Below are positions 169 to 41,472 of a DNA stretch of 64,000 nucleotides, one piece after another. The notes beneath the pieces are model-generated. The model searched no databases and was not told the origin of the DNA. It saw nothing but the letters and a program-made list of their open reading frames with translations. The DNA comes from Mesostigma viride (lineage: Eukaryota; Streptophyta; Mesostigmatophyceae; Mesostigmatales; Mesostigmataceae): NCBI GenBank assembly GCA_009746045.1, contig RPFO01000213.1, forward strand, positions 11,742,553 through 11,806,552. Direction: 5' to 3'. Position numbers and translations under genes: made by a program. Within the stretch, counting starts at the first letter, position 1. Each line of letters begins with the position of its first letter.

Positions 169-679
169 TCTTAACGGTTGTTTCCTCTCAAATGTCTTCA
201 TCAGCTGCACCTTCCACAAACCTTCAGGTAAGCACCTTCCCAGAAGACTTCCTGTTCATATTCTGCAAACGGGTAGTGTTTCAAATGGGAGGAATGGGAG
301 GAAGCAACAGACATATCAGTTATCGAGGAGCATTTTTATGGGTGGTTGGGTGGCGGTGGGCGGTGGGCGGTGGGGGGGACTTGGGGGGGTATTGCAGAGC
401 CAAAGGCAGCACGATTAAAGCCACATCCTGCCACCCACATTCTACCCGCTTACCAGTAGTTCAGGAAGAGATCCTTTACGTGACCTGAATGTGTTCATGT
501 TGTGTCGCCTGCCTGCATGGTCAACATGTGCTCCGGCTGCTGTCATCCAGCCCCAGAGAGATCATAGACATAGAAGATGTTCTCTCCCTTTTTGCCCCCC
601 GATGACCCGCCTTCCATCTCCCGGATGCCATCCTCGGGTGCCGCTGCCCCCACGCGTTTCTCTTTGGGTGAACCCTCAG

Positions 680-3600
680 GCTGCGGTGGCTGGGAGTTTG
701 CGCGCGCCGCAGGCATCGCCACCGTACCCTTTCCGGCCCCCAAGAAGCGCGCGGAGGACGACAATGCGGAGTACCTGACGGCCGAGCAGCTGATCGCCAC
801 GCTGCGGTACGGCTTGACGGCTTGAATCAAGGACTGAGAAGAGCTGAACTTGACAAGAATTTATTAGATGTACACCTACGGCTATCCCTTCTGATCGCCA
901 CGCTGTGGTGAGGCTTGACCCAACTTCACCGACGTTAGTGTGTGTAATACCAACAAGCGTGGACAGTGTACTGAGAAGAGTCCTTCATGACTAGATGTCC
1001 GCCCACGCGTAGCTCTTGATCGCCACGCTGCGGTGAGGCATGAAGACCCATCACCTTACGTCCTAGGATTGATGTCGAAGCGGTGTACTGAAGGGGGGTC
1101 ACCTTACGTCCTAGGATTGATGTCGAAGCGGTGTACTGAAGGGGGGTCACCTTATGTCCTAGGATTGATGTCGAAGCGGTGTACTGAAGGGGGGTCACCT
1201 TATGTCCTAGGATTGATGTCGAAGCGGTGTACTGAAGGGGGGTCACCTTATGTCCTAGGATTGATGTCGAAGCGGTATATTCAAGAGGTATCACCTTAGG
1301 TTCTGATTATTGATATTGAAGAGGTATATTCAAGAGGTATGACCTTAGGTTCTATTGAAGAGTAATAGTGAAGAGGTATCACCTTAGGTTCTGATCATTG
1401 ATATTGAAGAGGTATATTCAAGAGGTATGACCTTAGGTTCTATTGAAGAGTAATAGTGAAGAGGTATCACCTTAGGTTGTATGGTTTATTCCGTGCAGGC
1501 AACCGCAATGTGGAATTGAAACCGTGGGTTGAAAGCAAGCATGGTTGAGGTGCGCTGCATGGTGCAATCATGTGACGGTGTGCTGACGCCATGTTCAGCT
1601 TGCATGCTCTTTAAACCTACATGGCTCAAGTAACATGATCACTGTCACCATAGCTGTCATGGCGTCTCACGTGACGCGGTCATGCGTTGAGGTGATGCAT
1701 TCACGCGTTGATTGATTGATTGATTAATTAATTAATTAATTAATTAATTAATTAATTAATTAATTAATCAATTAATGAATCCCAATGTCGCTCTCGCCAT
1801 GGCCTCGTAATCGTGGAGTATACTGCCGAGTGTTACTAACCTTGTCGTGGTCTCGAAATCGTGGTGCGGCTATCTATAACCGATACATGTCCGTGTCAGA
1901 TTACTAGTAATTTCTTCAGGGTTCTTCTTCTTTTCAGGGTTTTCCTTATGTTGCATGCCAATCTCACCTCCGTAATTTATCATTCTCAATGAATGTATAC
2001 ATATATATCGTTACTACTTCTATTGTAGTAGTATATCATTATCGAATAATATGTGTACGATATTTTATCACTCAATCATCATCAATAAAGATTGGCTCCC
2101 AGGTACCCCACAATCCCCTATCACTCAATAGGGGTTATATTATATTATATATATGATTATATATATACTACTATATATTATACATATTATATATAATATA
2201 TATACAGCCGCACAATATGTAATTCATCTGAACCCATGGATAAACGGGAATAACAACGGTCCCCATGATGCGGCTCTCACAAATGTGCAGCTCGGTCATG
2301 CTGCGGGTCGTGCATTCCTATCGCCATCGTGCTGCGGCTCCCGCAGGGACCACCAGGTGGACTACGTCCTGCTGGCCGGTTTCTTGAAGCTGCTGCCCTC
2401 CCAGCTGTGCGCCGCGTACCCGCACGCCATCCTGAACATCCACCCGGCGCTTCTGCCCAGCTTCGGGGGCAAGGGCTTCTATGGCATCAACGTGCACAAG
2501 GCGGTCATCGCGTCAGGGTGCCGGTACGTGGGCGGCGGAAATTCATGGCTTATACCCACGCGTATGGGTGGAGAGTGCAAGTATTAGTGCACGAGCACGA
2601 GTGCTTAAACATGCACCAGGCGATCATCGCGTCAGGGTGCCGGTAGGTTGGGTGGGGGCAATCCATGGCTTATACCCACGCGTGGACAGTGCATGTAAGG
2701 TGCACAAGGTGCGGTGATTGCGCCAGGGTGCCGGTGCGTGATGGACAGCTTTCACAGCAACAAGCCCACGCCAATATCTTGCCTTGCGCACAGCATCACT
2801 GTTGGGGCGCAATCCGTGGCTCCTACCCATGCGTATGGGTGGGCAATGCAAGTAGTATCGCTTGACCGTGCACAAGGCGGTCATCGGGCCGGGGTGCCGG
2901 TGCGTGGGCGTGTGGCTAATCCTTGTGCATAGCGGAAGCACGGGATATTCCTATGAAGTGCGTCGGGGTGCCGGTGGGTGGGCATGGGCGGACCAGTATG
3001 GATAAGGGTACAAAAAGTACAAGAATAAATCGCTATAAATATAAATCGCTACTCCCGGGGTGCATGGGGTGGCTGTTGTCAGTTACCGTAGTCGTATTTT
3101 TGCATCAATAGTTAAGTGGGCTGGGTGGCTTTTTTACGAATAGACTTATTTGTGCTATGTGTGAATAGGAAAGCGCATAAGATGGCGGGCATGGCCGCTG
3201 ACATTTTCTTTGGTTAGCTCATGTGCACATAACGTATATCAATTTAAATGATCACGCAAGGGCCAGGGGAAAGAAAAGGAGAGCCACCGGAGCTCCGCCA
3301 AGAAAGAATTTGAGTTCCTGGGCCAAGGCCCAATCCCATAGGAGGAAAGCGTAACTGCAGGTAGGGGTGAAGCCTGGGTACTGTTTGGGCAAGTGCAGGA
3401 GCCCAATGGTCTGCCCCGTAGGCGGATGGGCAGACTTTTTAGGCTGGGCGAAGCCAGCGGGTCAGACTAGTAGTGTATGCTAGTACATGCTAGTACATGC
3501 TAGTACATGCTAGTACATGCTAGTACATGCTAGTACATGCTAGTACATGCTAGTACATGCTAGTACATGCTAGTACATGCTAGTACATGCTAGTACATGC

Positions 3601-3778
3601 TACTTTCAGTAGGTGTGCAGGGTGGCCGGTCCAGGGGGATTTTTGAAATGCGTGGATGTACGAAGCACTTTCTTTAAGCGTGTGCAACGGTTAGCTAAGT
3701 GTGGTTTCTGGTCGCTAAGTGTGGTAGTGGAGTTTTTGATTATACTGGTGTGATATATTCCCCCCCCCCACACCTCCC

Positions 3779-3814
<36 letters not shown>

Positions 3815-5196
3815 ACCCCCACCCCCACCCCCACCCCCACCCCCACCCCACCCCCACCCCACCCCCACCCCCACCCCACCCCACCCCCACCCACCCCCAC
3901 CCCCACCAGCTTCTCGGGCTGCACCATCCACTTTGTGGACGAGAAGTACGACAACGGCGTCATCGTCGCGCAGCGCGTGGTGCCTGTGGAGGCCAACGAC
4001 ACGCCGCAACAGCTGGCGGCGCGTGTGCTGCAGCAGGTGACTAAGGGCTGCAGTTTTTGCCATGATTGGTATCTACTTCTACAGCATTAGTATCTAGTAC
4101 TACCAAATAGTATATCAACGGTTGCACTTGTTGACACGCCGCAGAAGCGCGCGGCACTTTTCCAGCAGCAGGCACATAAGGGCACCCATGTTGCCCTTTA
4201 TCATTAGCTCCTGCTGTTCTATAGTTGATACGCCAGAAGCCTTGGTCGCGTGGGTACTGCTATGGGCAAGGGGTCCTATGTTTAGGGTACCCTAAACCCT
4301 CAACCCAGGCCTCCGGATTTCCGTGGTGGTATGCTGTTTTTGTTTCTAATATCTGCGTTTTGACGCTGTCTTTGTTTCTGATATCTGCAATGGTATTCTA
4401 TTTGTGCTTCTGATATCTGCGATGGTATTCTATTTGTTCTTCTGATATCTGCGACGGTATTTCATTTGTGTTTCTGATATCTGCGACGGTATTCTATTCG
4501 TGTTTCTGATATCTGCGACGGTATATTTGTGTTCTGATATCTGCGACGGTATTCTATTTTTGCTTCTGATATCTGCGATAGTTTTCTATTTGTGTTTCTG
4601 ATTTCTGTGGGGATTGCGCGCTTGAAAAATCCAGTAGCAGCAATAAATTGCAGTAATGTAGTGGCAGTAAGAAGCGGTAGTAACAAGTGGCAGCCGCACC
4701 CATGAGGATGCAACCGAGCTCTGCAGCACTGGAAGCCGCTGCCGCCGCCGCAGCATTGGTGATTGCAGTGATAGTGGGAGTCACAATGTTGGTGTCATCA
4801 TAGGGATGGCGTGGACAGGCGCACATACATGTCGGACTGCATACCCATGGCTATTGCAGCTCAGACGACTTATTTTTAACATGGCGGGTCGTATTGCTCA
4901 TTGCGTTCCATGACAGCCGGCACATTTTTTTCGAACATGATAACCTGCATTTTTTTGGGGGGGGCTGTAATGTCACATGTAATCCAATAGTATATATTTC
5001 TGCCACTGGCAGTAGCATCCGGTGTACTCACATCTCCCATGGCACCGTTCATGCATCAACCACTTGTCCGACTGTCTGCCCCTTGCAGGAGCACCAAGTG
5101 TACCCGCATGTGGTGGCCGCGCTGTGCGAGGGCCGCATCTCGTGGCGGGAGGATGGGGTGCCAGTCATCCACAAGCGGGAGGGGGGCCTGGAATAA
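680..5196 (+). CDS. GART: Phosphoribosylglycinamide formyltransferase (GART, PurN type), 5' partial
   Basis: Third step of de novo purine synthesis: transfers formyl from 10-formyl-THF to GAR. In plants the enzyme is plastid-targeted. Exons are 680-806, 2347-2523, 3910-4036 and 5089-5196, all GT-AG with consistent phases, ending at TAA. Exon 1 matches the region after the GAR-binding loop (GWEFARAAGI, then EQLIATLR). Exon 2 carries the hallmark stretch VDYVLLAGFLKLLP and LNIHPALLPSFGGKG, with the catalytic Asn-His pair. Exon 3 carries FSGCTIHFVDEKYDNG, which includes the catalytic Asp region. Exon 4 ends EHQVYPHVVAALCEGR, then ISWREDGVPVI. The N-terminal GGxGSN region is absent, so upstream exons lie left of the window; the exact start of exon 680 is inferred. 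All three introns hold degenerate copies of the preceding exon end. Confidence 0.93.
890..1045 (+). repeat. Echoes of the GART exon-1 donor
   Basis: The exon end at 789-810 (TGATCGCCACGCTGCGGT) recurs at about 893-912 and 1018-1037, each followed by a GT dinucleotide and a similar intron start. These are decayed tandem copies of exon end plus 5' splice site. Confidence 0.8.
1051..1480. repeat. 48 bp minisatellite with diverged flank
   Basis: About five near-identical 48 bp units start at 1051, 1099, 1147, 1195 and 1243 (each beginning TCACCTTA, then GTCCTAGGATTGATGTCG). They grade into older, diverged copies up to about 1480. The array lies in GART intron 1. It is open in several frames on both strands, which is a by-product of the period. 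Confidence 0.9.
1668..1775. repeat. CACGTGACG motif followed by (GATT)n/(AATT)n tail
   Basis: The motif CACGTGACGCGGTCATGCG is followed by (TGAT)n and about 14 AATT units. The arrangement resembles the 3' ends at 6040-6115 and 49036-49131, so this may be a retroposon end. It lies in GART intron 1. Confidence 0.55.
2600..2990 (+). repeat. Echoes of the GART exon-2 end and donor
   Basis: The exon end at 2494-2530 (GTGCACAAGGCGGTCATCGC, then GTCAGGGTGCCGG and the donor) recurs in decayed form near 2611-2650, 2697-2735, 2868-2905 and 2955-2985. Spacers between copies also recur (ATCCATGGCTTATACCCACG). The copies fill the start of GART intron 2 and look like protein only because they derive from the exon. 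Confidence 0.85.
3472..3602. repeat. 10 bp tandem repeat (TAGTACATGC)n
   Basis: About twelve perfect copies of the decamer TAGTACATGC in GART intron 2. Confidence 0.95.
3762..3909 (+). repeat. Poly-C and (CCCCCA)n tract ending at a 3' splice site
   Basis: A C8 run, a run of more than 30 C and then (ACCCCC)n reach the acceptor CACCAG at 3904-3909, which opens GART exon 3. On the coding strand the whole tract is pyrimidine-rich. The long ORFs across it are artefacts. Confidence 0.9.
4134..4190 (+). repeat. Echo of the GART exon-3 end
   Basis: ACACGCCGCAGAAGCGCGCG at about 4135, then a CCAGCAGCAGGC stretch and TAAGGGC, repeats the exon end at 3998-4048 (ACACGCCGCAACAGCTGGCG, then CTGCAGCAG, GTGACTAAGGGC) with many substitutions. 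Confidence 0.8.
4345..4605. repeat. ~38 bp minisatellite
   Basis: Six or seven imperfect units built on TTCTGATATCTGCGACGG followed by TATTCTATTTGTG, in GART intron 3. No coding function is suggested. Confidence 0.85.
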
Positions 5197-11175: not shown

Positions 11176-14100
11176 AGAATAATCCAGAACAAGAAATTCT
11201 GAAGCAAGAAGATCAATCCAGGCAAAATCACTGTACCATTAAAACTCACCCCGTCCCTGTCGGCACCCGCAACCATGGCTGCCCGCCCGAGGCACTCGCA
11301 TCCGGGGCAGTTGTGAAGGCTCGTGTGGATGTATGCGTCGCAGTCGAAGCAGAAGACGCGGTGGCAGCGGCGGCAGATCGTGCGCACGATCGCAGAGATG
11401 CCCCCCCCTGTGAGGGCCGAGTCAGCCCACAAGGCATGGGATTCAGCCCACAAGCGACCGGAATCAGCCCACAAAGGAAGAGAGTCAGCCCACAAGCGTT
11501 GAGAATCGGCCAGGTTAGATTGCGCCGTTGTGACGTGTGGGGAAAGCAAACACGGGGCAAGTACGGAAACTACCCCCTTTGCCGTAGTAGGGTCAGCAAT
11601 GCCTGAAGGGAGTGTGTGTGGGAGGTCAAGGGTGCTGATGAACCGGGTAGGTGGGGGTTGGGGTGGCTTAGATATATTATGGGATATGAAACAAAGTGTA
11701 GCCTTAGTCCTGGCCGCACCATGGATTTGTTTCATTGGGCCATAAAGAGGACCTATCTAAACGGAAAGCAGGCACAAGGAATGATGTAACCAGGGCTGGG
11801 AAAGCCTCCCAAATAACCAGGCAAAAAAACAGAGCGAAGTCGGAGGCATCAACCGACAGGTGAGCCACTGACACGTGCTAGGAAACTGATACACACCTAC
11901 AGCCCAACAAGCTCATCTTACATAGTAGTTTTCCTCAAAGCGCTCCCCAGTAGTCCGTGATTTCGCTCTAATCCGGGCTAGAGATACAACATAGAATACA
12001 TTTTACAGTATACATTTTACTAACCCATCGTGCCTGTTCCTGTCTGAGTGATCACCCATTTATTAGTTAATTGGTAACCGTTTGTCAAAACGACTGATTG
12101 ACCACGCCCTGCTGCACACACGCTTCTTGACCAGGGGGTAGCTGTACCTACCTGCCGTAAACGGGAGGAAGCACGCGAAGCACTGCCGCGCAAGGCCCAT
12201 CCTTGCCCGCAGCCGTGCCAGCTCTTCGGGGGGTACCCCCGCGGTGCCGCCGCCTGCTGCCCGCGTGTCTATAGGTGGCTGGCCCGACAGCTCCTGCAGG
12301 TGCGAGCATGAACATGTGCGCGAATTTGCGCATAGGCGCGAGCATTAGCAATGACGAACTCAAGCCGTATCGGTCAACAAAACTGATCAGGCCTGAGAAG
12401 CAGGGAAAGCAGTACCTGGGCCAACAGCTCTTTCAGGCAAAAGCGTGGGCGCAAGCGTAGGCAAAAGCCGCAAACATAGACCGAGGGAACCCATGGCAGA
12501 GTATAAAAGTAAAGCGGGCCTATAACTTTGATCCATGCATCAATTTAGCTGATGGGATACTGGCCGGAAAGATGCTGCAGGTGAAGGCATAAACTGTGTG
12601 CATAGACAAATGCATGACCACAAAGCGAAGACCAAGCCGCAAGCATGGACGAATGGATGCACGCGATGGTGGCCAATAAGAATCCAGGCCTTGAGATTAG
12701 CTGGTAGTGTGCATGGGCGGCCAGTTCCTGGGCGGGTGCAAGCAAGATGTCATGCATTGGCCCAGGTGCAAGAGTAGGCCACGGTGAACGCCTGTAAAGA
12801 TCTGGCCTGTAGAGATCCGGGCTGTGATCTATACCGAGACATCAAATGCATTACCTGTCCATTGGGGCATAAACTATGATAAATTAAAATTAAATTATAG
12901 CATGACTCCGTGGGGAGATCATGTAGCACATATTCCCTTGCTTGATGGATGGATAAAGTACACAGCCGCACAGAACTACCTATTTATGGCCGTGCATGTG
13001 GCCAACAGAACCCTGGGATACACCAGAATACACCAGAACGAAATCAAATCCGTTAATTGTGTTATTAGAGAATCAGCCTTTAAATGTGTTGTAAGCATTA
13101 TGAGAGGGATTGACGTGGCAGAACTGGCTGCGCTGTATGATCCACAGCTCTAGTCCAGGCAGTCATTTGCAAGATGGACAGCCAGAGCCTCACCTGAGCG
13201 GGGACTTCGATGAAAGGTGCCACCGGGAACAGGTGGTGGTAGGAGCGGGCGAGATGCGGCGAGGAGACAAGCGTCAGCCCACAGGCGCGGCACTCGGACG
13301 GGAGTTCCGCCGCCTGCTCGTGCCACGCCACCCAGTCACACGACATGACAAAGGGGGCGTGCCTTGATTGATAGGAAAATAAGTGCAGCTGAGGTTTTTA
13401 TGTGTGGTGTAAATGTAGTGTAGCGGCCTTACCCCTGACTTGCAGCAGGTGCATGCCTCAATTATTCTGAAATGCTACTACAGTTTATATATCGCGTCGC
13501 AGCCAGACTCCAAATAGCAAAGACAGTCAAACTCCAAATAGCAAATACAGTCAAACTTCAAACAGCAAATACAGTCAAACTTCAAACAGCAAATACAGTC
13601 AAACTCCAAATAGCAAATACAGTCAAACTCCAAATAGCAAATACAGTCAGACACCTCATAGCAAATATACGAAATGCTGCTGATGGTATGCGGAAAATAC
13701 ACGAAAACTCACGTAGCTCAGAGCCCCTAAACAGTATACATGTGCGTGATTTGCATGTCGTGTAGCGGTCTAATCCCGTCTGCAGCACGGGCACAAAGGG
13801 TTGGCCTGTCTAAGAAGTACCGTAGTAAGTCCACAACCCTTTTACTCCTAGTGTTACACAGCAGCCTTACCCGCGTTTTGCAGCGGGGACATGCTCCGGC
13901 CTCTATTAGTTACAAGTAACGTAGTGTAAACACGGCATCTCTAGCTTACCCTAGTGTTGTACTACAATATTAGCCTAACCTGCGCCTTGCAGGGGTGGCA
14001 GGTGTCAGGTTGTCTAGCGATAAAAACTGCTGTGGTGTACACCTGGCCCTCTTACCTGCGTGTTGCAAGCGGTGGGCAGGTCTCCGCTTGGAAAGTACAT

Positions 14101-14393
14101 AACTACTGCCGCATGTATACGGGTGGCACATACATGGGTGGGGTATGTACGGGAGGCACACACGGGGAGTATACAGCAGGCTTGCCCGCTTCTTGCAGCA
14201 AAGTCATGCCCTGGCCTGACTTAATGTGAAACACACGCCTTGGCCTGTCTTAATATGAAACACTGTAGTGCCTATCTGGCCCTCTTACCCGCGACTTGCA
14301 GCGGGGGCATGTGTAGCCGCCCCCAACCTGCAGCCGTCGGTTCGCGTCCGAAATGCTCAGGCCCTTCTCGGCTTGGCGCTGCATATTCACACA

Positions 14394-20400: not shown

Positions 20401-23400
20401 TGCGGAGCACACCGCCCTGACTCATCGCCACAAGTAGCAGAGCTACCAGCGCCATCAATGCATCCAAGGAAAAGCAATATTACCCATGGAGGCATCCTCA
20501 CAGACATGTTGTCCGTAAAACACATTCTAGCAGCGAATCTTGCACGTCGCTTGCCTCAGCACTTGCCTCTTTACCACCATGCAACTGTGTAAGAAGTCAG
20601 GTGCCCTAAAAACGCATTCAAGTCATAGAAGAACCACTTAATAGGTAGTCTGAGTGTTGGAAGGATTCACAAAATAACGCCTGCCTCGGCTGACATGCCA
20701 ACCCCAGAGCACCATGCGCAACTCCTTGCATTACAAATCACACCACATTCTACAACAATTACGACGACAATACTGTAGTAGAACGATATGCAAAGCAAAG
20801 CACTTGTGCATACCTCCGCGGACGTGCCAACGACGGAGCATCGGCAGCTGCTGTCCTTGCACGCGTCGATGGTCTTGCGGATATCCCCCGGGTCGCACGT
20901 GTTCAGGGCCGACACGAGCATGACCACCTGGAGACCAGAGGGGGGGGGGATTCCTTAGTGGCAAGTGATTGCCTCACCTGGGTATCAACAAATTTTGGTA
21001 CCCACGTGACGTGAACCTTACACCCCTACACACAACGAGAAGCAGGGAGGGCGCCCTAGCTTCTCTCACTGCCTCAAGTGGGCAGGCCACAGCGGGGGGG
21101 AAACGAGGGGAGGGAAGGAGGCACGGGAGACCACCCAGGCAGTCCCACGGTCCGAGCAGGAAGAACGTACGACAATGCATGAATAAAGACACAAAATGCA
21201 TGAATTGAGCAGAACGGTATGAGCTGGAATGAAAAAAATGCAGGAATGTGACGTGAAAGAGAAGACAAAATAAGTAAATAATAAATGCGAGCGACGCCAA
21301 TCGCCAACAAGACCAACGACAGCAACTTGAGTGGCCAAAAGTATGGGTTTGTCGTGTCTGCGCGGTGGCCTGTACATGGATACAGCAAGCTTAAGGTTGG
21401 GCTTGGGCGCGATGCTGCGGGGCATGACTAAGGATGGCGGTGCTCACCACCACAAACCAACCACAAACTGAGCAGGGTGGTGGGACTCCTGGCTACCTAC
21501 CTTGATTGTGCTTGACAATAACCGGACTGGACACAGGACCTGGTCATGCCATCAGACTCCGGCTTTGTTTGCCCTAGTGCCCTTGCTGCGCTAGTGCCCT
21601 GGCCTGAACATTGGCCAAGTATATGCCCCTACGATCATGCGCTCATGCATCCAACCAGCCCCAACGGCGCCAACCCAACCACTGGCGGATGTCCTGCGCT
21701 CGCAGACAACAACGCCAGGGGAGCAGGGGTGCGGGGAGGGGGAGAGTGGCCCACCTCGTGGAAACCTGTGGCCTGCGAACCCAGGTACTTCAACCCAAAC
21801 ACTGGCAGCTGGCACGTACCCACTCGACTAAAACCAAAGATGACCCCGAAAGAGAACAAAATACGTTCAGGTTTAGTAACTTCTAGTTTCTATTTCCACT
21901 GAATACTTGCCAACACTGCCTCGAGCAGGCGAGAAGGTGGCTCACCTCGCGGAATCCGTAGGATGGAATATCTGCCAGGGACGCCAGGGCCATGTCCAGG
22001 CAGTTCTGAAGCGAGGCATCGCCCCCCGTGTCCATGTTTCTCCTGGGGGGACGAAACAAAGCAAGGGAGGGCAGAAGAGGGCAGAAGAGGGCAGAAGAGG
22101 GCAGAAGAGGGCAGAAGAGGGCAGAAGAGGGCAGAAGAGGGCAGAAGAGGGTATAAGAAAGGCACGGGAGGGCAGGAGGGCAGGAGGGCAGGAGGGCAGG
22201 AGGGCAGGAGGGCAGGAGGGCAGGAGGGCAGGAGGGCAGGAGGGCAGGAGGGCAGGAGGGCAGGAGGGCAGGAGGGCAGGAGGGCAGGAGGGCAGGAGGG
22301 CAGGAGGGCAGGAGGGCAGGAGGGCAGGAGGGCAGGAGGGCAGGAGGGCAGGAGGGCAGGAGGGCAGGAGGGCAGGAGGGCAGGAGGGCAGGAGGGCAGG
22401 AGGGCAGGAGGGCAGGAGGGCAGGAGGGCAGGAGGGCAGGAGGGCAGGAGGGCAGGAGGGCAGGAGGGCAGGAGGGCAGGAGGGCAGGAGGGCAGGAGGG
22501 CAGGAGGGCAGGAGGGCAGGAGGGCAGGAGGGCAGGAGGGCAGGAGGGCAGGAGGGCAGGAGGGCAGGAGGGCAGGAGGGCAGGAGGGCAGGAGGGCAGG
22601 AGGGCAGGAGGGCAGGAGGGCAGGAGGGCAGGAGGGCAGGAGGGCAGGAGGGCAGGAGGGCAGGAGGGCAGCAGGAGGGCAGGAGGGCAGGAGGGCAGGA
22701 GGGCAGGAGGGCAGGAGGGCAGGAGGGCAGGAGGGCAGGAGGGCAGGAGGGCAGGAGGGCAGGAGGGCAGGAGGGCAGGAGGGCAGGAGGGCAGGAGGGC
22801 AGGAGGGCAGGAGGGCAGGAGGGCAGGAGGGCAGGAGAAGGGCAGAACAACGGAAAGGCAGCGCAAGGCAGAGCATGGGATGGAGTGAACCTGGAGGTGA
22901 CGGTACATGGAAGAGAGCAGATCAGGGCGGTACGGGGGTCGTATAGCAAATAGCATACAGGGGTATAGCATATAGCACACAGGGGTATCGCATATAGCAT
23001 ACAGGGTTATAGCAAACAGCATACAGGGGTATAGCAAATAGCACACAGGGGTATAGCATATAGCATACAAGCGTATAGCGTATAGCACACAGGGGTATAG
23101 CGTATAGCACACAGGGGTATAGCATATAGCACACAGGGGTATAGCGTATAGCATACATGTGTATGGCATATAGCACACAGGGGTATAGCATATAGCATAC
23201 AAGCGTATAGCGTATAGCACACAGGGGTATAGCGTATACGGGTGCGAGTCGCGCGTTCGTGGGCCGCAAGGGGTGAGTGTCAACCAGCACAAACACCACA
23301 ATCGCCTTGGTGGGCACCCCCCCACTCAACAAAGCTCCGCCCACTTTCTACCATTCGATCAGGACCCACCCATTCCCACCTATGTGTGTTGGCCACCACC

Positions 23401-26400
23401 ACCACCACCAGCAGCAAGTGTGCGCGATGCCACCCGGGCAAGCAAGGGTCGCTTGCTGTCCCATAACGTTATACCGCGGGCACGCCAGCCCACAAACCCG
23501 AGCAAAACGACGTCGATTGTGGGGACAAAAAAAAAGTCAATTGTGGGGACACAGAAACTGGGGCATCCCTGGCTGGTGTCATGTGCACTTTGGCTGGTCC
23601 AAAGCGTACACTAAGCGCACACTATAGCACACACTATAGCACAGGATACAGTATACAATGTACAGCATAGTCGGTCCCACCGTGGGCATACATCCGTGGT
23701 TCAAAGCGCACACTACACAGTGCAGTCAGTCAGAGTGGACATACACACTTCCAGAGTGGGCGTACACACTTCCAGAGTGGGCGTACACACTTCCAGAGTG
23801 GGCATACACACTTCCCGAACGGACATACACCCGAGGTCCGCTCTAAGTACACGCCCAAGCAGGCGTGCGCGCGTATGAAGTACCTGAGGGCCGCGATGTG
23901 CGCCTCAGGGCTTCCTCCGAGCGAGGTGACCTGGGCGGGAGCATGAAGTGGAGGACGACAAGAAAAGCGAGAGGTTGAGGACGACGACGACATCTTCACA
24001 ATCCAACCCAGTTCGAAAGTTGTCGAGGGCGCAAGTTGTTGAGGACGACGACAACAGTCCTGTCTGGTTATGGAACCCCCTGGGGGGCAGACCGATTTGC
24101 TGAAGAGAAGAGTGGAGCCGGGTGGAAGGGGGGGCATCGCAATCCCGGCCCCAAAGGGGCGGATGGTTTAGCAACCTGGTAGTCAAGGTGGGCACTTAAT
24201 GCCCAAAGGACCTGTGGAAGGGGCTTATGCGCATGGGATGGGACATCGTCTGGGTTCCCTAGTCCGCAGTACAATACACAACATCATCTACTGTATTAAA
24301 ATAGATCATGTGAGAGATGGATGGAACATAGATCTGCTTGATGAAGTCCACCTCTGTGCACGTTAATTGCCTCAGTCATAAGCCTGAGACGCCTCATTTT
24401 AGAAGCATGAGATGGTGCCTTCACTTCTGGCGCGGAGCAAGCAGGCCGTGTGCATGCGTGCTGCAACAGGCGACGGTGCCTTCACTGATGCTTGGAGCAA
24501 GCAGGCCGTGTGCATGGCTCGGCACGCGACGGTGCCTTCACTTATGGCGTGGAGCCAGCAGGCCGTGTGCATGCGTGCTGCAACACGCGACGGTGCCTTC
24601 ACTTATGGCGCGGAGCAAGCAGACCGTGTGCATGCGTGCTGCAACACGCGACGGTGCCTTCACTTATGCGCGGAGCAAGCAGGCCGTGTGCATGGCTCGG
24701 CACGCGACGGTGCCTTCACTGATGCTTGGAGCCAGCAGGCCGTGCATGCGCAAGCACGCTGCAACACGGCATTGTATTCGCCAGCAAACGTTCCTCTCGT
24801 GCTTTTTCTTCGGCAGCCGCACGAGCCAAACCTCCTCACCACCCGTGTGCGGACAGCACTAGCCATTGGGCGGTCCTTCCACAAGAGATTGCCTTGCGAA
24901 GCCGTAGCTGGCACCCGCAACCGCAGCAGGCAAGGGGCACACCATGCTAGCAGAGGCCAGCAGAGGAAGTATGTCCCGCCTGCCCATATTTTGTTTTTTG
25001 CTCTTGTTTTGTGAACGTGCCGTGAATGAGGCAGCCCATCCCTGCTTTCATGGTACACCAGTATGAAGTCTGCCTTTTTGGTGCGGTATATAGCCCACCT
25101 CCCTTCCTCCCCTGCGTCGCAGTAGCTAGCCGGCCTGCTCGGTGAGGCAAGAATGCTTACCCTTTCGGCACCCCCGTTGCGGGTCACGATGACCCCCAGC
25201 TGGCTCAGGGGGTTCTGGCTGAAGAATTCGTGGATGAACGCCTGGTGGTTTACGGGAAAGATGACACAAGAGAGGGAAGAGGGGAAGGCCTCATAAGGTG
25301 AGGCGGGGTTGTGGCTGACAAATTAATATCCGTGCACAACGGTTCCGACAAAGTCAGCCAAAAATTGTGAGTGACAGCGCAAACATGACTCCACAGAGCA
25401 TGCCATAGCCCAGCACATGATCTTTGCATGCAAGCAAAAAAAATTCTAGCAGGGTCAACCAAGAAAAGGAGTGCAATTGACAGGCCCACTTCCACAGAGC
25501 GTGCCATGACTTGACCTGCATCCATGCGAAATGATGCTAAATTGTACAACAAACAAAGAAAGCAGCATCGGCCAGAACGCCGAGCGTCATGACCTAGCCA
25601 TATGACATCAGCGGGATGACGTTTGTGAACAACAGCACAATCGTACCTCCACGGAGCGCGTCATGACCACCAGCCGTGATGGCCGCATGTCCGTTTCGGT
25701 GACGGAGCGAGAGAGGTCGACCACCTGGTGCCATGGTTGGGGGGGGGGAGGAGGAGGTACAGCGATGCGCACAGAAGATGAGAGGTCGACCACCTGGTGC
25801 CATGGTTGGAAGGGGGAGGAGGTAAAGGGACGCACACAAATGATGAAAAAGGGATTAAGCAGTGATGAAAAGGGGATGAAAAAAAGATCACGCAGTGACG
25901 AAGAAGGAATGGAAAAGGGATGGAAGGGGGATGGGAAAGGGATGGAAAAGGGATGGAAAAGGGATGGAAAAGGGATGGAAGGGGGATGGGAAAGGGATGG
26001 AAGGGGGATGGAAAAGGGATGAAGGGACAAAAGGGATATATTTGCCACTGATGTTGAATGGCGCGGGGTGGGAGCAACGCGAGATGGCAAAGTCCACCGA
26101 GACTCTTACGCCCCCCTCTCCCCAACTTCACCCCCATACTCTCGCAATTATAATTACATTTGGTAAAAATAATTGGGGGGCATGATGCCCCCTCTCAAGG
26201 GCTATGTGCTACATATACTCCCAACGGAGTTATGTTACAATTCATGATGGCGAAACCCAAGGGTTGCATGTTAGGGGGCGGGTACATGGAGACGCGGTTT
26301 CTTGCCTGAGCAGAGGCCGTCCTTGGCAAAGCCCCCCCACAGTAACGCGCACCAGGCACTAAAGTGCACCAAGCGCACTACAGCGCACCCCGTGCACTAT

Positions 26401-30806: not shown

Positions 30807-33800
30807 ATGCAACAAAATAATTCACCTTCTGAGGGAGGGGGGCAACCTCGAATACGACTTCGTATTCCTTCGATACAGGAAGTGCAGAATTTTTCTCGCC
30901 TTGGCGAGACGCTCTCGGTGCCTGCACCCGCAGTTCCGCTGGCACCCGCTCGTCAGCAGGCGGCACCACAACCTTCCATCAATGCCCAGCCACCTGCGCC
31001 CATCAGCGTCGCTCCCGGAAATTTTGTCCCCCCATCTCGGCTTCCCATTAACCCCGATGGTGAAGCTGGGCGCTCACGGCAATTCTCCGGGTAAGCAATA
31101 TGGAGTTTTCTCTCCGGCAAGATTGCCGGTGGAGCTGGCAGCTTTGATACTTGCGCAGACTTCTTCTTAAGTGCTGCTCACGGAAGTCGACGTACATCCA
31201 GCAGTACTATGTCAACTGTCTGCGTGGTTTTTGCTAGATGTGCCTAGGCAACCGCTGCGCAGTTTCCAGGAAAGATCCAGCGGCTGCAAGCCTTACCATG
31301 ATAACCTTTTGTTTTGTTCTGAAAGCCCCTCGTGGCATGCATGCTATCGTCAAGGGCGTAGCGGTTGTCACACTGAGCATATCTCATGTCCGTTCGTGCA
31401 CGCTATCCCCTTGTAATGCCCTTGGATCAAATAATCAAGCCTCATACCTCATACCTCATGCATCTTGCATCGGATTTAGTGCAAGTTTGGTAATGCCCCT
31501 GCATCATCCATTAATTCTTCATGTGTTAGGTTGCACTCTCGTTTGTTGCAGCGACCAGTACCGCCACCATCACAATCACGGTGTGACCCTTGTGCTACTG
31601 TAGCTCGTCCGCCATGTCACTGTCGCTTCTGGACCACGTCACTACTGTCGTTGTCGCTTCCCAGCTCACTGTCGCTTCTGGCCCACGTCACAGCTGTCGT
31701 TGGCTCTTCCCAGTGTGAGCACTCGCCCTGCTCTCGCTGCACACGCTCACTTAATTGCCTCTCACTGTCCCTCGCTGTCATTGCCGTGCCCTTGTAACGG
31801 TTGGTGCCTCACGATTGGTGCCTCACGGTTGGTGGATATTGCACAGGCCCGGTGCACAGGCGGATGCGGCCGCACCCAGTAGCGCGCAGCCGCCCCAGAA
31901 CGCCATCATCGTCAGCAACCGCCAGGTGGGTGCTGCAATTCTACCAGTGGTAATGCGATACTACATTGTGTTATTGTAGCGTCAGCCACCGCCAGTTGGG
32001 CGCCTCTATGCTGTTGACTAGGCGTGACACAACAATGTATGATTCAACAATGCGTGATTAAGCAATGTGTGATTCAACAATGTGTGATTCAACAATGTGT
32101 GATTCAACAATGCGTGATTCAACAATGCGTGATTAAACAATGTGTGATTAAACAATGAGTGATTCAACAATGTGTGATTCAACGCTGTCAGCCACTAGCA
32201 GGTGGGTGCATATCAATATGCTAGTCAACCAACTTTGGTAGCTAATCAACCAATTTTGGTAGCGAGAAATTATTGTCATTCAAGGATGGTTAACATGCAT
32301 TCTTACAAAAATCATTCTCGTGAAGTAATGCATCGATAGTTGACCTTGTGGGTCCCTCGGTGCCACGGAGCCGAATGAAGCAAAGTGTGGTAAATGACAT
32401 GGCGGACGCTTTGATTACGCTCATCGCATGGCGTGGGTTGCGCCCATACGTGGCATGCACCGGCACCTGGGAAGTAGTAGAAGCTTGCGCTGGGCTATGT
32501 ACACACGGCACAAGCTCATGCTTGGGTGTGGCGCACCAGTAAGCTCGTGCCCGGGGTGTGGCTGAAGCAGTATCCATATCATATCGCAACAATCACACGC
32601 ATAGCATCAGCATGGGCATGCGTGCAGGGGGCATGGCCGTGTGTGTTTTTGTGTGGATGCATGTCTTTCTTCTTTTCTGCGTGTTTGTGTGCGTTTGTGT
32701 GTGTGATCTCTATTCCATGTCTGCGATCCCCATAGTGGAATAACCTGGGTGCTCCACTCGCTTTCACTATGACGACCGCAGAAGGGGAACAGCGTCCTGA
32801 AGCACATCCGCAACTGCCGATGGGTGTTTGGAGACATCGTGCCGGACTACCAGCTGTCGCCCACCACGGTCGCACTGTACATAAGGTCGGGCTGGCACTA
32901 GCAGCAGTACTGGCAGTGTTACCCTTCTCAAGTAGCACATTCGTTTTGACTACGCGCTGTCCTCCGCCACCGTGGCACTGGACACAGGGTAGCAGGTTTA
33001 GTCTTCGTGGCAGCGCTGTCCTCCGCCACCGTGGCACTGGACACAGGGTAGCAGGTTTAGTCTTCGTGGCAGCGCTGTCCTCCGCCATCGTGGCACTGGA
33101 CACAGGGTAGCAGGTTTAGTCTTGGTGGCAGCGCTGTCCTCCGCCACCGTGGCACTGGACACAGGGTAGCAGGTTTAGTCTTGGTGGCAGCGCTGTCCTC
33201 CGCCACCGTGGCACTGGACACAGGGTAGCAGGTTTAGTCTTGGTGGCAGCGCTGTCCTCCGCCACCGTGGCACTGGACACAGGGTAGCAGGTTTAGTCTT
33301 GGTGGCAGCGCTGTCCTCCGCCACCGTGGCACTGGACACAGGGTAGCAGGTTTAGTCTTCGTGGCAGCGCTGTCCTCCGCCACCGTGGCACTGGACACAG
33401 GGTAGCAGGTTTAGTCTTCGTGGCAGCGCTGTCCTCCGCCACCGTGGCACTGGACACAGGGTAGCAGGTTTAGTCTTGGTGGCAGCGCTTGCCTAGCTCC
33501 AAATAAGGCAGGGGGGGGGGGGGATCCGCCACGACGGCCTGGCCTTGTACAAATGTGTTTCAAATTTACACTAGGACCGGTTGTCTGTGGGAACACCTGC
33601 TTAGCTCCAGTAACGCATGGGGCAACCCGTTGTCCATGGCGACAGTGGGCATAGGGAATTTAGGGCCTGTGTGCATAAGGCCAGGCTGGCAGAGCCACTG
33701 GCAATCATCATCTAGTTGAAGCTAGAGTAGGACTTGATGCCACCAGCTGTGCTTTGATGAACATTACACATGATTGGCCTCAAGTAGCCATTTGTTCTTT

Positions 33801-36800
33801 AGCACCGCTCTTAATTAAGCACCGCTCTTACCCTATTTTGTAGGCATGACCCATGACCGACAGGTTAATGCCCACCCTGTTGGATTGCGAAGGGGCTATG
33901 TACCAGTTTGTTGATCTGCCATCACCCTTATGGCCCTCATGCTGTACCCCCACTAATACCTATCTGTTTATTCAAATGTGTGTGGCTTTTTCAACGTGTA
34001 TGGGTATTTGGCCTACCCGCCTCAAGTTCCACCCCCCACTTATTCTTGCCTATATGGTAGTAGTACTATATCTGTGGGGCTTATTTAATTGTGTCCTGGC
34101 GTCGGCTGCCAGCCTCAAGTTCCCATGCCGCACCCCCACTGATGCTTGCCTACCTACTTGTTTGTGTGGGGCCATGTCTTACTCGTATTCTGCCCCTTGT
34201 GCCGCCAGCCTCAAGTTCCACATGCTTCACCAGGACTACTTGTTCGCACGCATGCGGGAGCTGCAGCGCCACTACCGGCTGCGCATCCTGATCTGCCACG
34301 TGGACCTGGTGAGCGGCACCGCTGTGTTATCAGTTATTGTGTACAATAGCAAGGTTGATTAGAATTGTTTATTATAATTGTCCGTAGTGATAACAGCATG
34401 TTCATCCTCACCTGCCACGTAGACGTGATGCGCCACGGCGTCTTGCGGTGGAAGTCAGTGTTAGTGTCAGCAGTGGCAAATGGTTTGCTGATATTCATTC
34501 GCCAGGCGTACCTGGTGAGCCGCCCTATCAAATAAGATGTACTGCGTCCATGAATAGCGACAAGTACCTGTTATGTGTGTAATGCAAAACCACGTGGACC
34601 TGGGGAGGCGATCTTTTGCTGAACTAGTTTGCCGAAAGTTATTGCTGAAAGTAATTTATCACATTTCTTGCGGTCTGTGGACCCGTCGACCTGCTGAGCC
34701 ATGCCTTTTGTGAATCGGAATATCGTCTTTTGTTGATGCTTGTAAGCAGTACATTTTGCGTTTAAGAGGCTATTATAACGCCGTGTGGAAATGTTGTCGC
34801 GAATGGCTTTAGGAGCTTGTTGCAACATTTTCACGATCCAACCGCCTTGCGAGGCCGTAGAGTGACCTTTTCTTCTTGGGAGCAGGGAGTTTATGTGATA
34901 CCAGGGATTATGAAACAGTAGGTAGTACGCTGCAGACGTTGCCGAGTCTGTATTTACAAACGCTGTACATGCCCCTGTTAAAACAACTGTTGTTGTAACC
35001 GTTACTAGTTTTGTGGCGGCAGGCGTCGGCTGCGGTGCCTCTCAATTTTATGATAACCTACAACAATGGGAGCATGAACGGCTGCTGGAAAAATTACGCT
35101 GGCACATAGCCATACGATGGAAATAATAAAAGCTGAAATAGCGCTGAACTGTAGACAAAGTGGCACTGCTGGTGAGCCTGATGAGGCCTCTCTCAGTTTT
35201 TCATCCAACCATGAACTTCTGGAGTAGGACAATATCCCCAGGCTTGTTTCCTGGTTTTGACGCCGGTGGTGCAAAGTTGAAATTGTTTTTGGCTGATGTT
35301 CATTGAAAAGCACATCTTATCATGTTCCTGTGCCTATGTTCCTCTGCATCGGCTTCTGCTCCTTCCCTCACCCCTTCCCCCCACCCACCCACCCCCCAGC
35401 AAGATGCCGTCAAGCCGCTGGGCGAGGTGACAAAGCTGGCGGTGGTGAACGACTTCTCCCTTTTCTGCGCGTGGAGGTGAGGGTGCTCCCAAATCTTTTG
35501 ATGACGAGACATAATGCTCCCTCTTCTGTGTGGGGACGTAGGTGCTAGAGGCTGCCTTCTTGTGTGTGCTTTTGATGAGTCCTTTTGATTGCTGTTGTAT
35601 TTGTGAAAGCACTGTGAAGGGGGTCTCCCTCTTCTGCGCATGGGGGTGAGCGTACTCGCCAGGCTCTTGATTAACATACGGCCTTACAGATAGTGTCGTC
35701 CCTTGGCTGCATCATGAGACGCGCGTCTGCACGGGGAGGTGATGGAGTTTGTATTAGCAGACACTTTTTGGTTATTTGTGCTGCTGTACTTGATATGGAT
35801 CGGTTCAGTACTCTGTGACATGCCTCGTGGATGCACATCGCTACTTTGCTAATGCCTTTATCACAAACTACGACGCATTTCCTGGTTCACATGGGCAGAG
35901 GGCGTAGAAAGAGGTTTTTTGCGCTCAGTTGTGTTCAAATGCGTCGTAGTTGTTTCAACAATGGCCTTTCTATGTATTTTGGTAAGTAACAAGTCTCCTC
36001 CTGTTTCCCCTGCCTTTCTATGTATTTTGGTAAGTAACAAGTCTCCTCCTATTTCCCCTCCTCAAACCTACCTGGCGTAAACGACTCTTGAACGCGCAGT
36101 TTACACTCAAAGGTATGTGTATTTGAGCGCTTCCATGTGTGATTCTGCAGCACACGGTGCACGCCTGCACGCCTCAGGCTTGGAGGTATCTCGGGGCTGG
36201 TTGCAGTTCCTTTCGAATGGGGATAGATTTGAAAGCGATAAAAATAATTTCAATTGGTACGCTGATTTTGTGTGTTGTGATTATAGTGGTGTTGTGATTA
36301 TAGTGGTGGGCGCATTTGATTTTAGACTTGGACAATTCTGTCAAGCCACTATGCTATGAAGTAGCCCACATGCGCTTTCTAAATCTGGAAACTGCACTTC
36401 TGGCAACCACCCTAACGCGAATGCATGGCTGGTGGCATATTGGTGGGTTGGAATACCTGTTTACTTGCAAACCTGACTTCCCCTCTTTGTGCATGTCATT
36501 AATGGAGGATCCCTCCAGCCGCGAGGAGTGCGCGCGCTACCTGGAGACGTTCAAGTGTTTCGAGAAGAAGCCCGCCGACATGCTCATGCAGCGCAAGGAC
36601 ACCGACTACATGTCGCGGGTGAGGGAGCGTGTGGACATGATCAACCCTATGCGGTACTATTGTTTGGGTCCGGTTGATGGCACTGACTGCATGTCGTGGG
36701 TGAGGGAGCGTGTGGACATGATCAACCCTATGCGGTACTATTGTTTGGGTCCGGTTGATGGCACTGACTGCAGGTCGTGGGTGAGGGCGGATGATGGAGG

Positions 36801-39800
36801 AGGAGGGGGGGACAGATATTGTCGAGTGCCATTCTAGAATCATTGGTTTGTCGCGTACTTGTAGTCCTGAAAATGCCTGGTGCACGAGTCATGTATGGAC
36901 AGTCAACTGTACCGGCATCTATCCCTGTAGCCTGCGGTACAACATTTGCGGTAGAGAGCTTTCAAACCACATGAGCTCCCAGCAAGACAGCGTGGTGGCT
37001 CTGGTAGCAGTATATGCAAAGGTGGGTGGAACCATCGACATTCACGCTGCTTATATCCCTTGCTGCGCTCTTCAATATCCCAGGCATGCACTTCAAGCAA
37101 CTTGCCTCGCTCGCAGCATCAAGGCCAGCGGAATGAGCCATGCGTATGACGTGACCGTTCCTCACTCTCGTTAAGGTATTCGCTGATACCTGCGCAACCA
37201 TGGCTGGACGCAGCACTATTATCGTCACTAGTCCGTGGACAAGTCGGTTAGATCCCACGGTTCCGTCTGCACATTTCGTAATTTACATTTGACAGTCTGC
37301 TCAAGTGACTACGCAAGTAAAAACGGTTTGATCTGACAAGTCAAACTGTCGGCCATGCCCGCACGCTGTCATGCCACAGCAAAGCTCACGTGCGCTTTTG
37401 CCATGGATTACTCAAGCGGTTACAAAGCTGTGGCTCTGTCTGCGCAGAGGTGCTGAATGAGCCATGCGCCTAACGCACTGACTGCTTCACATGGTGCCTG
37501 AGCCATGCATGAGATGAAGTAAGCTACCCAAGTAGGCTCGTTGCCTGCTCACATGGTTGGCTTTGTGCCCTCATGGGGATAACAGAGTGGGGTTGTGCTT
37601 GCGTGGGACTTGTACGTGTGTTGGCGGCATGTGGGCGCGCCACCTGGCAGCTCGCGGACGTGCTCACGTGCGTGCGCGGCGTCAACCGCACCGATGCGGG
37701 CACGCTCGGCCGTACCTTCAAAGTAGGTCGTTCCCAGGGTAGCCTGTTACCTGTATCTTTGCAGTTGCGTATTTGAGCCAATGGTTAATTGCACGTACAA
37801 CCAACCAGTCGGCGCCTCTTGCAGGTCCAGGCATTGCAGCTAACAATCGGGCCTGAGTTTGCGTGTGGGCATGCTGACCCCCACGTCGCGTATGGGCTGG
37901 TTTTGTGATGTATCAACGAGACAACCAGCGCAGGGCAGAAATCTGGAGAATCCGATGTATGTTTGCCCACTGTTCCTTAATAATAAAAACAACAGAATCA
38001 AAAAATCAAAATCTTGCGCGACACTGCCAGATAAGTAGCTTGATTGCCTAGATATGTCCCTTGGCAGGCTTTATAGTATAGTAGCCTTACCGTATAGCCT
38101 TATTGTTTAGTAGCCTAACCACGAAAGGTGAGGGTCATTGGCTGGGTGTTGAACTGATGTGTAAGGCAGCAGTATGGTGGTGGTACGTATCTCAATCAGC
38201 AATGGCACTGCGGTACTTCTGCACAGATTCAAGCATCGAGCTCTAGGTTCTAAAACTCCTTATTCAGATCAATGGTTTTGGAACAAGAGTCTATTTTGGA
38301 ACCGCTCGTATCAAGCTTGAAATTCTCTTCCTTGATTATTTTACTTGCTACCTGTTTCTTCTACTTTTCTGTGCCTCAAATTACGGTCGGGCATTATAAA
38401 TTGACATCATCGGTTACCTCTGCCTGTCGTGCTGCAAAGTGCAAAGTGACTACGGGTGCCCACCAGCTACCCACTTCCCCCCATCCCCTCGTTCCCCTTT
38501 GCCCCACTCAAGTATTAGTAATGAAGGGTCTTCATCTGTACCCTGGAACACAATGTATTGTCCTGTAAATCAGCGGCCCATGCATTCTTGTCGTGTTGTC
38601 AACTTGGTGCAATTTTAGTATCTGCAAATGTGATCATGAGCAGCCTTATTATTGTTTTCCAACCTACCGGCCACCACACACAAGCCACTGTGGCCACAGC
38701 CGTTGCTGACTAGGCCCGCCATCCCTGCCCCCGCCGTGGCCCCCACCGTGCAGACGTTGAAGCAGATCATGAACGCGTCCCTGGAACAGATCCTGGCATG
38801 CCCTGGCATCGGCGAGCAAAAGGTGGGTAGCGCGCAGTTCCTTGACCACCAGTCTCCTCGCTTGTTATCTTTAGAGTACCCTGACCATCCGCCTGTTCTT
38901 ACCTTGCTAGCTGGTCGGCACGCTGTCCTGACAGCGCGCCGTCTGCTTACCCTTGCCTGTGTTCTTTGCGGGCCCCGTCATCGGCAAACAGAAGGTGCGC
39001 TCAATAACTTGACCTCTGGTTCCTTGCTCGTTGTTTGTGTAGTCCTCTGTTGTAGTCCTTGACATAGATGTTGTTTGTGTAGTCCTTTATGCTACCCACT
39101 CACCATAGGGCGCCATGCCATGTGGGGTCGATGGCCATGGCCAGCTCAAAGTTGGGCGTCATGCCATGTGGGGTTGATTGGGATTGTCAACTATACGGTG
39201 TGCCCAGTGGTTCCTCGCCTGTGCGTTGTGTTCCTTGCCAGCCTCTTCCTCTGTTGACGATGGGTCGGTTTGGGTCGGTTTGGGTCGGTTACATTTCAAC
39301 CGCACACAAGTACACACTTATCGGCCGGCTTGTCCCGAGGGTGGTACCAGGCTCGGTGCCTTGCAATCTTCTAGTGCAAATTGGCGGTCTTGACCAGAAG
39401 GACAACTGTAAAGACTCGGCCTATGAGTAGAACTCCGTACTGTTTTGTCTCACACAGCTTGCGCATGCGCTTGTCAATCCCGTTGGGGTTCGCCATGGTT
39501 TGGGTGCAGTGGAAGCCGCTTCACATCGGTCGGTGTGCCACATGTCTGACACAGCTTGTGCACGGCTCCAGTTTTGTGGGGGTCCTCCCACTTAAGTAAC
39601 ATACTAGTATTTGTCGCTCCCACTTGAATCGTTTCGGTGCAGGCGAAGCGGCTTCATGAGGCGTTCCACCAGCCGTTCCTGTACACAGTGAAGCAGCCGC
39701 GCATCACCTACGCGCTGTCGCAAAGAGGGGCGTCAGGGGCTGGCAGCTCGTCCCAGCCACAGGCAGCATCCTCTCAGGGGGAGGCAACGGAACAAGAGAG

Positions 39801-40959: not shown

Positions 40960-41472
<513 letters not shown>

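What the first reader, a model, noticed from the sequence alone, without database searches (positions are those of the whole stretch)
800..4190. Exon-edge echoes in GART: each intron begins with decayed tandem copies of the exon end and donor
All three GART introns seen here contain copies of the last 20-45 bases of the preceding exon plus the GT and early intron: two after exon 1, about four after exon 2, one after exon 3. The copies differ in age, so duplication recurs. Known minisatellites in introns are not normally seeded by the splice junction itself. The same pattern in p44 and ERCC1 argues for a general process, for example repair or slippage triggered at exon-intron junctions, or recurrent junction duplication that could create new introns or exons. 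I know of no description of this as a genome-wide feature.
Basis: seen in the sequence. Interest (0 to 1): 0.88.

Follow-up and report, generated by a model that had tools for sequence, protein, structure and literature searches.

The report
Tandem copies of splice junctions
In this genome, probably that of a green alga, the ends of exons together with their splice signals have often been duplicated into the intron behind them; the copies look like decaying, unused duplicates, and their excess at intron starts over intron ends hints that the first splice signal to be transcribed wins.

Summary
All three GART introns carry copies of the exon end plus donor (2, 4 and 1; 0 of 500 shuffles per intron reach them). 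The claims for ERCC1 and p44 hold: 12 of 17 window donors. It extends beyond the window: in kinesin, TCP1 and HSP70 genes 33 of 89 donors but 10 of 97 acceptors carry a junction-spanning copy (p = 2e-5), against 0.8% for swapped introns. Exon interiors are almost never copied (2 of 75 and 0 of 72). The copies belong to decayed tandem units that start 7-44 nt inside the exon, resemble duplications inside the introns, decay neutrally by codon position and keep GT without detectable selection. Best reading: ordinary local tandem duplication, tolerated across the donor because the upstream donor keeps winning, and kept less often across the acceptor. My neutral simulations under-predict the donor rate (about 18% against 33-40%) and do not reproduce the short exon part, so a donor-focused duplication process remains possible. 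Intron birth and templated insertion are not supported. No RNA evidence was available.

The parts
574..806 (+). GART (plant-type PurN) exon 1, coding part seen in the window, donor GT at 807
   Evidence: open frame 574-822; frame continues into exon 2; donor from frame continuity
807..2346 (+). GART intron 1 (1540 bp)
   Evidence: GT-AG
891..919 (+). echo 1 of exon 1 end + donor, 26/29 identical to -17..+12
   Evidence: 0/500 shuffles; tandem unit 790-890 vs 891-1015 aligned
1017..1043 (+). echo 2 of exon 1 end + donor, 24/27
2347..2523 (+). GART exon 2
   Evidence: reading frame and recalled PurN homology (no Pfam match alone); donor 2524
2608..2662 (+). echo of exon 2 end + donor, 47/54 (-35..+19)
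2697..2740 (+). echo of exon 2 end + donor, 37/42
2856..2910 (+). echo of exon 2 end + donor, 47/55 (-44..+11)
2960..2992 (+). echo of exon 2 end + donor, 27/30
3910..4036 (+). GART exon 3 (Formyl_trans_N)
   Evidence: E 8.3e-11
4133..4183 (+). echo of exon 3 end, 40/50 over -39..+12, GT lost
4999..5033 (+). acceptor-side echo of exon 4 start (27/35), AG kept
5089..5196 (+). GART exon 4 with stop
   Evidence: reading frame
31980..32003 (+). ERCC1 echo of donor at 31926 (second copy 32187-32209)
32948..33285 (+). ERCC1 echoes of donor at 32886 that grade into the 59-bp minisatellite 32954-33489
34403..34439 (+). ERCC1 echo of donor at 34309 (further copies 34501-34523, 34590-34607)
36681..36719 (+). 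ERCC1 echo of donor at 36619, unit 81 bp (second copy 36762-36787); intron part 62/62 identical, exon part 16/19
38972..38997 (+). ERCC1 echo of donor at 38823
34105..34134 (+). ERCC1 acceptor-side echo of exon start at 34209
39495..39523 (+). ERCC1 acceptor-side echo of exon start at 39643
25488..25510 (-). p44 echo of donor at 25646
25780..25815 (-). p44 acceptor-side echo of exon start at 25724 (34/34 aligned bases, one 2-base gap)
21739..21766 (-). p44 echo of donor at 21945
20684..20711 (-). p44 echo of donor at 20813 (ends one base into the intron)
13866..14081 (-). p44 three echoes of donor at 14288 (14043-14081, 13975-14005, 13866-13893)

Best explanation
The echoes are decayed head-to-tail tandem duplications (short minisatellite-like units; copies 33-376 bp downstream, median 103) whose unit happens to straddle the exon end and the 5' splice site. 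They come from the same local tandem-duplication process that fills these introns. A unit overlapping the donor leaves the coding exon and its donor intact and puts the copy downstream, inside the intron. If the splicing machinery keeps using the first, upstream donor, the copy is harmless and decays neutrally, while the exon original is held by protein selection, so old copies stay recognisable. A unit overlapping the acceptor puts a ready-made acceptor upstream of the real one; such copies are kept less often. Shown: the copies, their tandem units in several introns, the donor/acceptor asymmetry, decay without sign of coding or GT constraint. Inferred: first-donor use, selection against acceptor copies, and break repair or slippage as the source of the duplications.
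For: Units align beyond the junction (GART introns 1 and 2; complete young units of 70, 81 and 88 bp). Core length, shift and identity of the 34 donor echoes are similar to those of 90 duplications inside introns. Codon-position identity 217/244, 227/251 and 204/246 fits a neutral copy plus synonymous change in the exon. Echo GT is kept in 59 of 62 aligned bases, no better or worse than expected for neutral. Of 28 echoes keeping GT, 23 would shift the frame and 18 add a stop if used; only 4 would be harmless, yet their donors score nearly as well as the real ones (7.26 vs 8.28), so the upstream site must be favoured. Fresh pairs (identity 0.90 or more): in paired introns donors 12/80, acceptors 0/80, interior points 500/5843; outside the window with single-ended junctions donors 15/88, acceptors 3/96, p = 0.002.
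Against: Neutral simulations give donors 12-25% when interior points are 7-17%; observed donors are 32/80 overall and 22/67 outside the window at interior 13.6% and 12.3%. All 31 measured echoes start within 44 nt of the donor and have exon part/shift of 0.41 or less, where simulation expects about half above that ratio. Fresh acceptor copies are fewer but not absent: 3 of 29 single-ended ones (identity 0.92-0.97) and one of 17 in the window (p44, 0.94), so purging is incomplete. The acceptor echoes seen in the window keep AG (by inspection). Fresh donor pairs exceed interior points about twofold when single-ended junctions are counted. No RNA evidence of which donor is used. No relative of this genome was held, so no duplication was dated.
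Confidence: 0.5

Rival explanations
1. Donor-focused duplication: the 5' splice site region is itself a hot spot for small tandem duplications, for example because the nascent transcript, U1 or a G-rich donor makes breaks or stalled forks there; the left end of the unit is set within about 45 nt of the junction.
For: Donors exceed interior points 2.7-fold outside the window and acceptors about 4-fold (22/67 vs 5/67). All 31 exon parts are 7-44 nt. Fresh pairs (0.90 or more) are 15/88 at donors outside the window against 7.9% of interior points. A simulation with extra duplications starting at -45..-5 (three times the base rate, on top of it) gives 37% donors with class frequencies close to those seen.
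Against: The most similar pairs (0.95 or more) are no clear excess at donors: 6/80 vs 388/5843 interior. Acceptor echoes have similarly short exon parts, so the limit is not donor-specific. The simulation is simple, its rates were tuned, and it does not reproduce the interior class frequencies.
Confidence: 0.33
2. Functional retention: echo donors are kept as decoys or extra U1 sites.
For: 28 of 32 spanning echoes keep GT (27 by inspection, where one case has a gap); many keep a good donor match.
Against: GT and coding positions decay no slower than expected for neutral copies.
Confidence: 0.06
3. Templated insertion during end joining (polymerase theta) that copies nearby sequence into intronic breaks.
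For: Short cores with a poorly matching remainder of the unit in many cases.
Against: Exon segments only 50-110 nt from the junction are almost never copied (2/75 and 0/72); simulated plain tandem duplications give a similarly poor remainder; GART units align beyond the core.
Confidence: 0.04
4. Remnants of intron birth by tandem duplication of an exonic AGGT segment.
For: The class is known (PMC4974935, PMC2891723).
Against: No similarity between donor and acceptor windows of the same intron: 0 of 81 at score 22 or more; the copies carry intron sequence, so the intron came first.
Confidence: 0.03
5. Assembly artefact or chance.
For: Nothing specific.
Against: Copies differ in identity from about 76% to 100% and occur in many contigs; shuffles 0/500; swapped introns 0.8%. 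Long reads were not available.
Confidence: 0.02

Closest known systems
Tandem repeats enriched near intron-exon junctions in green algae (PMC3887541; passages incl. part of the abstract)
   Same: Repeats in introns, more towards intron ends, in Chlamydomonas and Volvox.
   Different: That survey counts repeats inside introns at both ends; the passages seen do not describe units that include the exon end, nor a donor/acceptor asymmetry.
Intron gain by tandem duplication of an AGGT segment (Rogers/Hellsten model; PMC4974935 passages; PMC2891723 abstract and section 10)
   Same: A tandem duplication that includes a splice signal and leaves the protein unchanged.
   Different: There the duplication makes an intron out of exon; here the intron exists already and the duplication only lengthens it. 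Tested and not met.
Small tandem duplications from break repair (PMC8355091, abstract and outline; rice and plant cases recalled)
   Same: A known source of short head-to-tail duplications.
   Different: The mechanism was not tested here; no junction preference is described in what was read.
5' splice site tethered to RNA polymerase II by U1 during intron synthesis (PMC8316553, abstract and outline)
   Same: Gives a reason why the first donor transcribed should win over a later copy.
   Different: Shown in human cells; not shown in this organism. The abstract says cryptic intronic sites are involved too.

Membership tests
Intronic minisatellite / tandem repeat | Head-to-tail copies of a unit of roughly 10-200 bp | tested here: met
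   the GART echoes are too decayed to be among the Tandem Repeats Finder rows shown (13 rows not shown)
Intronic minisatellite / tandem repeat | Unit lies wholly inside the intron | tested here: not met
   units begin 7-44 nt inside the exon in 31 of 31 spanning cases
Intron gain by AGGT tandem duplication | Exon end repeated at intron end, intron start repeated at next exon start | tested here: not met
   0 of 81 introns at score 22 or more
Introner elements | Same sequence family shared by many introns | tested here: not met
   junction segments do not match other introns: 0.8% of 650 swapped pairs; only 26 introns compared
Templated insertion (TMEJ) | Template may be any nearby sequence, exon interior included | tested here: not met
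   2/75 and 0/72 exon-interior segments
Tandem alternative donors | Echo donor used in mature RNA | not testable with these tools
   no RNA data; 24 of 28 would frameshift or add a stop
Break-repair small tandem duplication | Unit ends fit break or nick repair in recent events | not tested
   no polymorphic event found: the one contig pair looked at (C2/C622) shows only two single-base gaps over the part that aligns well

The most novel reading that the evidence does not exclude
In this lineage 5' splice sites are preferred origins of small tandem duplications, with the left end set 7-44 nt inside the exon, so that introns grow from their donor end by a process coupled to transcription or splicing; acceptors have it far less.
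Probability: 0.33. Interest if true: 0.8.

Novelty: new variant of a known kind. Interest (0 to 1): 0.55.

Why it matters
Echoes are a natural experiment on splice-site choice: duplicated donors placed downstream are often kept, duplicated acceptors placed upstream are rarer, fresh ones too (3/96 vs 15/88). That is what a first-transcribed-site-wins rule predicts, an old question (scanning versus competition, recalled) that this genome could settle with RNA-seq. They also show how introns lengthen and give a record of duplications that could be dated with relatives, since the exon copy is held by selection. If the donor excess proves mutational, it would be a new link between splicing or transcription and DNA duplication.

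Tried and rejected
Remainder-of-unit test: many echoes seemed to have an unrelated spacer, which suggested insertion or gene conversion; simulated plain tandem duplications gave a similarly poor remainder, so I dropped that reading. A first extension script matched itself and is not used. The acceptor part failed on a coding error; acceptors were redone. Comparison of C2 with C622: two single-base gaps over the part that aligns well, no echo polymorphism; mismatches of that part were not counted apart (a BLAST step for it failed). GT retention as a sign of function: not above neutral. Intron birth: no. Literature: ten searches; searches gave nothing on this pattern, the others related papers only.

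Rows dropped: of 129 kinesin, 58 TCP1 and 51 HSP70 matches I gave 84, 31 and 37 to the pairing script; it made 39, 20 and 23 introns, and those with splice score under 8.5 were dropped, leaving 32, 19 and 17. Four window donors without a located next exon were left out of paired tests. One paired intron too short for the search was left out (80 of 81). The tRNA-synthetase search was not followed. Three dynein introns (1 of 3 donors and 0 of 3 acceptors at 26 or more) are not in the pooled counts; the other dynein matches were not fetched. Single-ended junctions (21 donors, 29 acceptors) rest on one exon match and a splice-site score. The splice model was trained on the window's 17 donors and 17 acceptors.

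One search added the single-ended and window ones (3/29 and 1/17), and I lowered the best explanation from 0.55 to 0.50 and raised the hot-spot reading from 0.30 to 0.33.
Full report
What was checked. The window lies at G000:C1:11742553-11806552 of a 440-Mb assembly, GC 53%. Plant-type PurN, many dynein and kinesin matches and the intron style suggest a flagellate green alga (inference from recall, not tested). Gene models of GART, ERCC1 (Rad10) and p44 gave 17 donors and 17 acceptors.

Observation. In each GART intron the best match of the last 40 exon bases plus 20 intron bases beats all 500 dinucleotide shuffles (43, 68, 40 against maxima 26, 29, 29). Over the window 12 of 17 donors score at least 26, each with 0 of 200 shuffles; 5 of 17 acceptors do, one of them a C-rich tract. 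Random 60-mers in the genic spans reach 26 in 21.6% of cases and in 41.5-63 kb in 6.2%, so these introns are rich in local duplications anyway.

Independent sample. Kinesin, TCP1 and HSP70 matches in the same genome were paired into introns by reading frame, profile position and splice score. With 13 window introns the set has 81. Junction-spanning copies (score 26 or more) occur at 32 of 81 donors and 8 of 81 acceptors (p = 1.8e-5): window 10/13 vs 3/13, kinesin 12/32 vs 4/32, TCP1 8/19 vs 1/19, HSP70 2/17 vs 0/17. Without the window, which was chosen because of the pattern, and with 21 donors and 29 acceptors called from one side (11 and 5 positive), it is 33/89 vs 10/97 (p = 2e-5). Swapped introns reach 26 in 0.8% of 650 pairs. 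Exon segments not touching the junction are rarely copied: 2/75 upstream, 0/72 downstream. Points 45-100 bases into the intron have a copy in 15.2% of cases.

Anatomy. Of 85 introns 34 have a donor copy; 31 span the junction under strict extension, with a median exon part of 23 nt (7-44), intron part 13 nt and shift 103 bp; exon part/shift never exceeds 0.41. Units in GART introns 1 and 2 align beyond the core with indels; young cases repeat complete units of 70 (kinesin C2189), 81 (ERCC1) and 88 bp (kinesin C1502). Cores, shifts and identities are similar to those of 90 duplications inside the same introns; the one difference is that interior duplications often go on to the left of the core while donor copies stop in the exon.

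Age and selection. Identity by codon position is 0.889, 0.904 and 0.829, as for a copy that decays freely next to an exon that changes mainly at third positions. GT is kept in 59 of 62 aligned bases. Twenty-four of 28 echo donors that keep GT would break the frame or add a stop if used, although their scores are close to the real ones (the score was trained on the window's donors). So the cell must mostly ignore them, which an upstream-first rule explains; U1 tethering of the first donor to polymerase II in human cells (PMC8316553, abstract) is a possible basis.

Donor excess. By identity class (0.95 or more, 0.90-0.95, 0.85-0.90, below) donors of paired introns are 0.075, 0.075, 0.100 and 0.150, interior points 0.066, 0.019, 0.015 and 0.036, and acceptors 0, 0, 0.025 and 0.075. 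The most similar class is thus alike for donors and interior, and the donor excess is in the other classes. With single-ended junctions outside the window, pairs of 0.90 or more are 15/88 donors and 3/96 acceptors (p = 0.002), and the window has one such acceptor (p44), so fresh acceptor copies are scarce, not absent. One-sided decay must contribute, but simulated neutral duplication gives only 12-25% donors at 7-17% interior in most settings, up to 32% where interior points reach 24%, and about half of simulated echoes have an exon part/shift above 0.41. A simulation with extra duplications starting at the donor gives 37%, though with tuned rates and without matching the interior classes. I therefore leave about a third to a true donor hot spot.

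Comparison with known things. Intronic repeats towards intron ends are on record for two green algae (PMC3887541, passages), intron gain by tandem duplication is known (PMC4974935 passages, PMC2891723 abstract and section 10), and small tandem duplications arise in break repair (PMC8355091, abstract). I found no description of repeat units that include the exon end or of the donor/acceptor asymmetry in my ten library searches. Of the papers listed there I looked into those named in this report and two more (PMC8226300 passages; PMC10809524 abstract); the rest I saw only as listings. Most subscription papers are not in that library.

Verdict. A real, recurrent feature of this genome, best read as a junction-spanning variant of ordinary intronic tandem duplication, with an asymmetry that makes splice-site choice testable.

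Noticed in passing
G000 contig C2011 (places): Long uninterrupted HSP70, chaperonin and tRNA-synthetase matches; looks like a bacterial contig (contaminant or symbiont) in the assembly.
   Followed up: no
L048/L049 (C2 and C622); C887 and C1641: Pairs of regions with equal kinesin or TCP1 matches, probably haplotypic duplicates in the assembly.
   Followed up: partly
window 49736-51174, - strand: Open frames that look like a LINE-type reverse transcriptase (by eye, recalled motif).
   Followed up: no
window 3760-3907: C-rich (CCCCCA)n tract directly before the acceptor of GART intron 2.
   Followed up: no
window 22167-22837 and 40961-41472: Long arrays GGAGGGCA x83 and AAAG x128.
   Followed up: no
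window 32954-33489: 59-bp minisatellite of 9 copies whose unit contains a decayed copy of the preceding ERCC1 exon end, so an echo seems to have grown into an array.
   Followed up: partly
L048, kinesin intron on C2: An inverted-repeat-like insertion (GGTTGGGTCGGTTACCGG at one end, by eye) cuts into the second junction copy.
   Followed up: no
HSP70 introns (L067-L086): Few echoes (2 of 17 donors, both on C1801) compared with the other families; unexplained.
   Followed up: no
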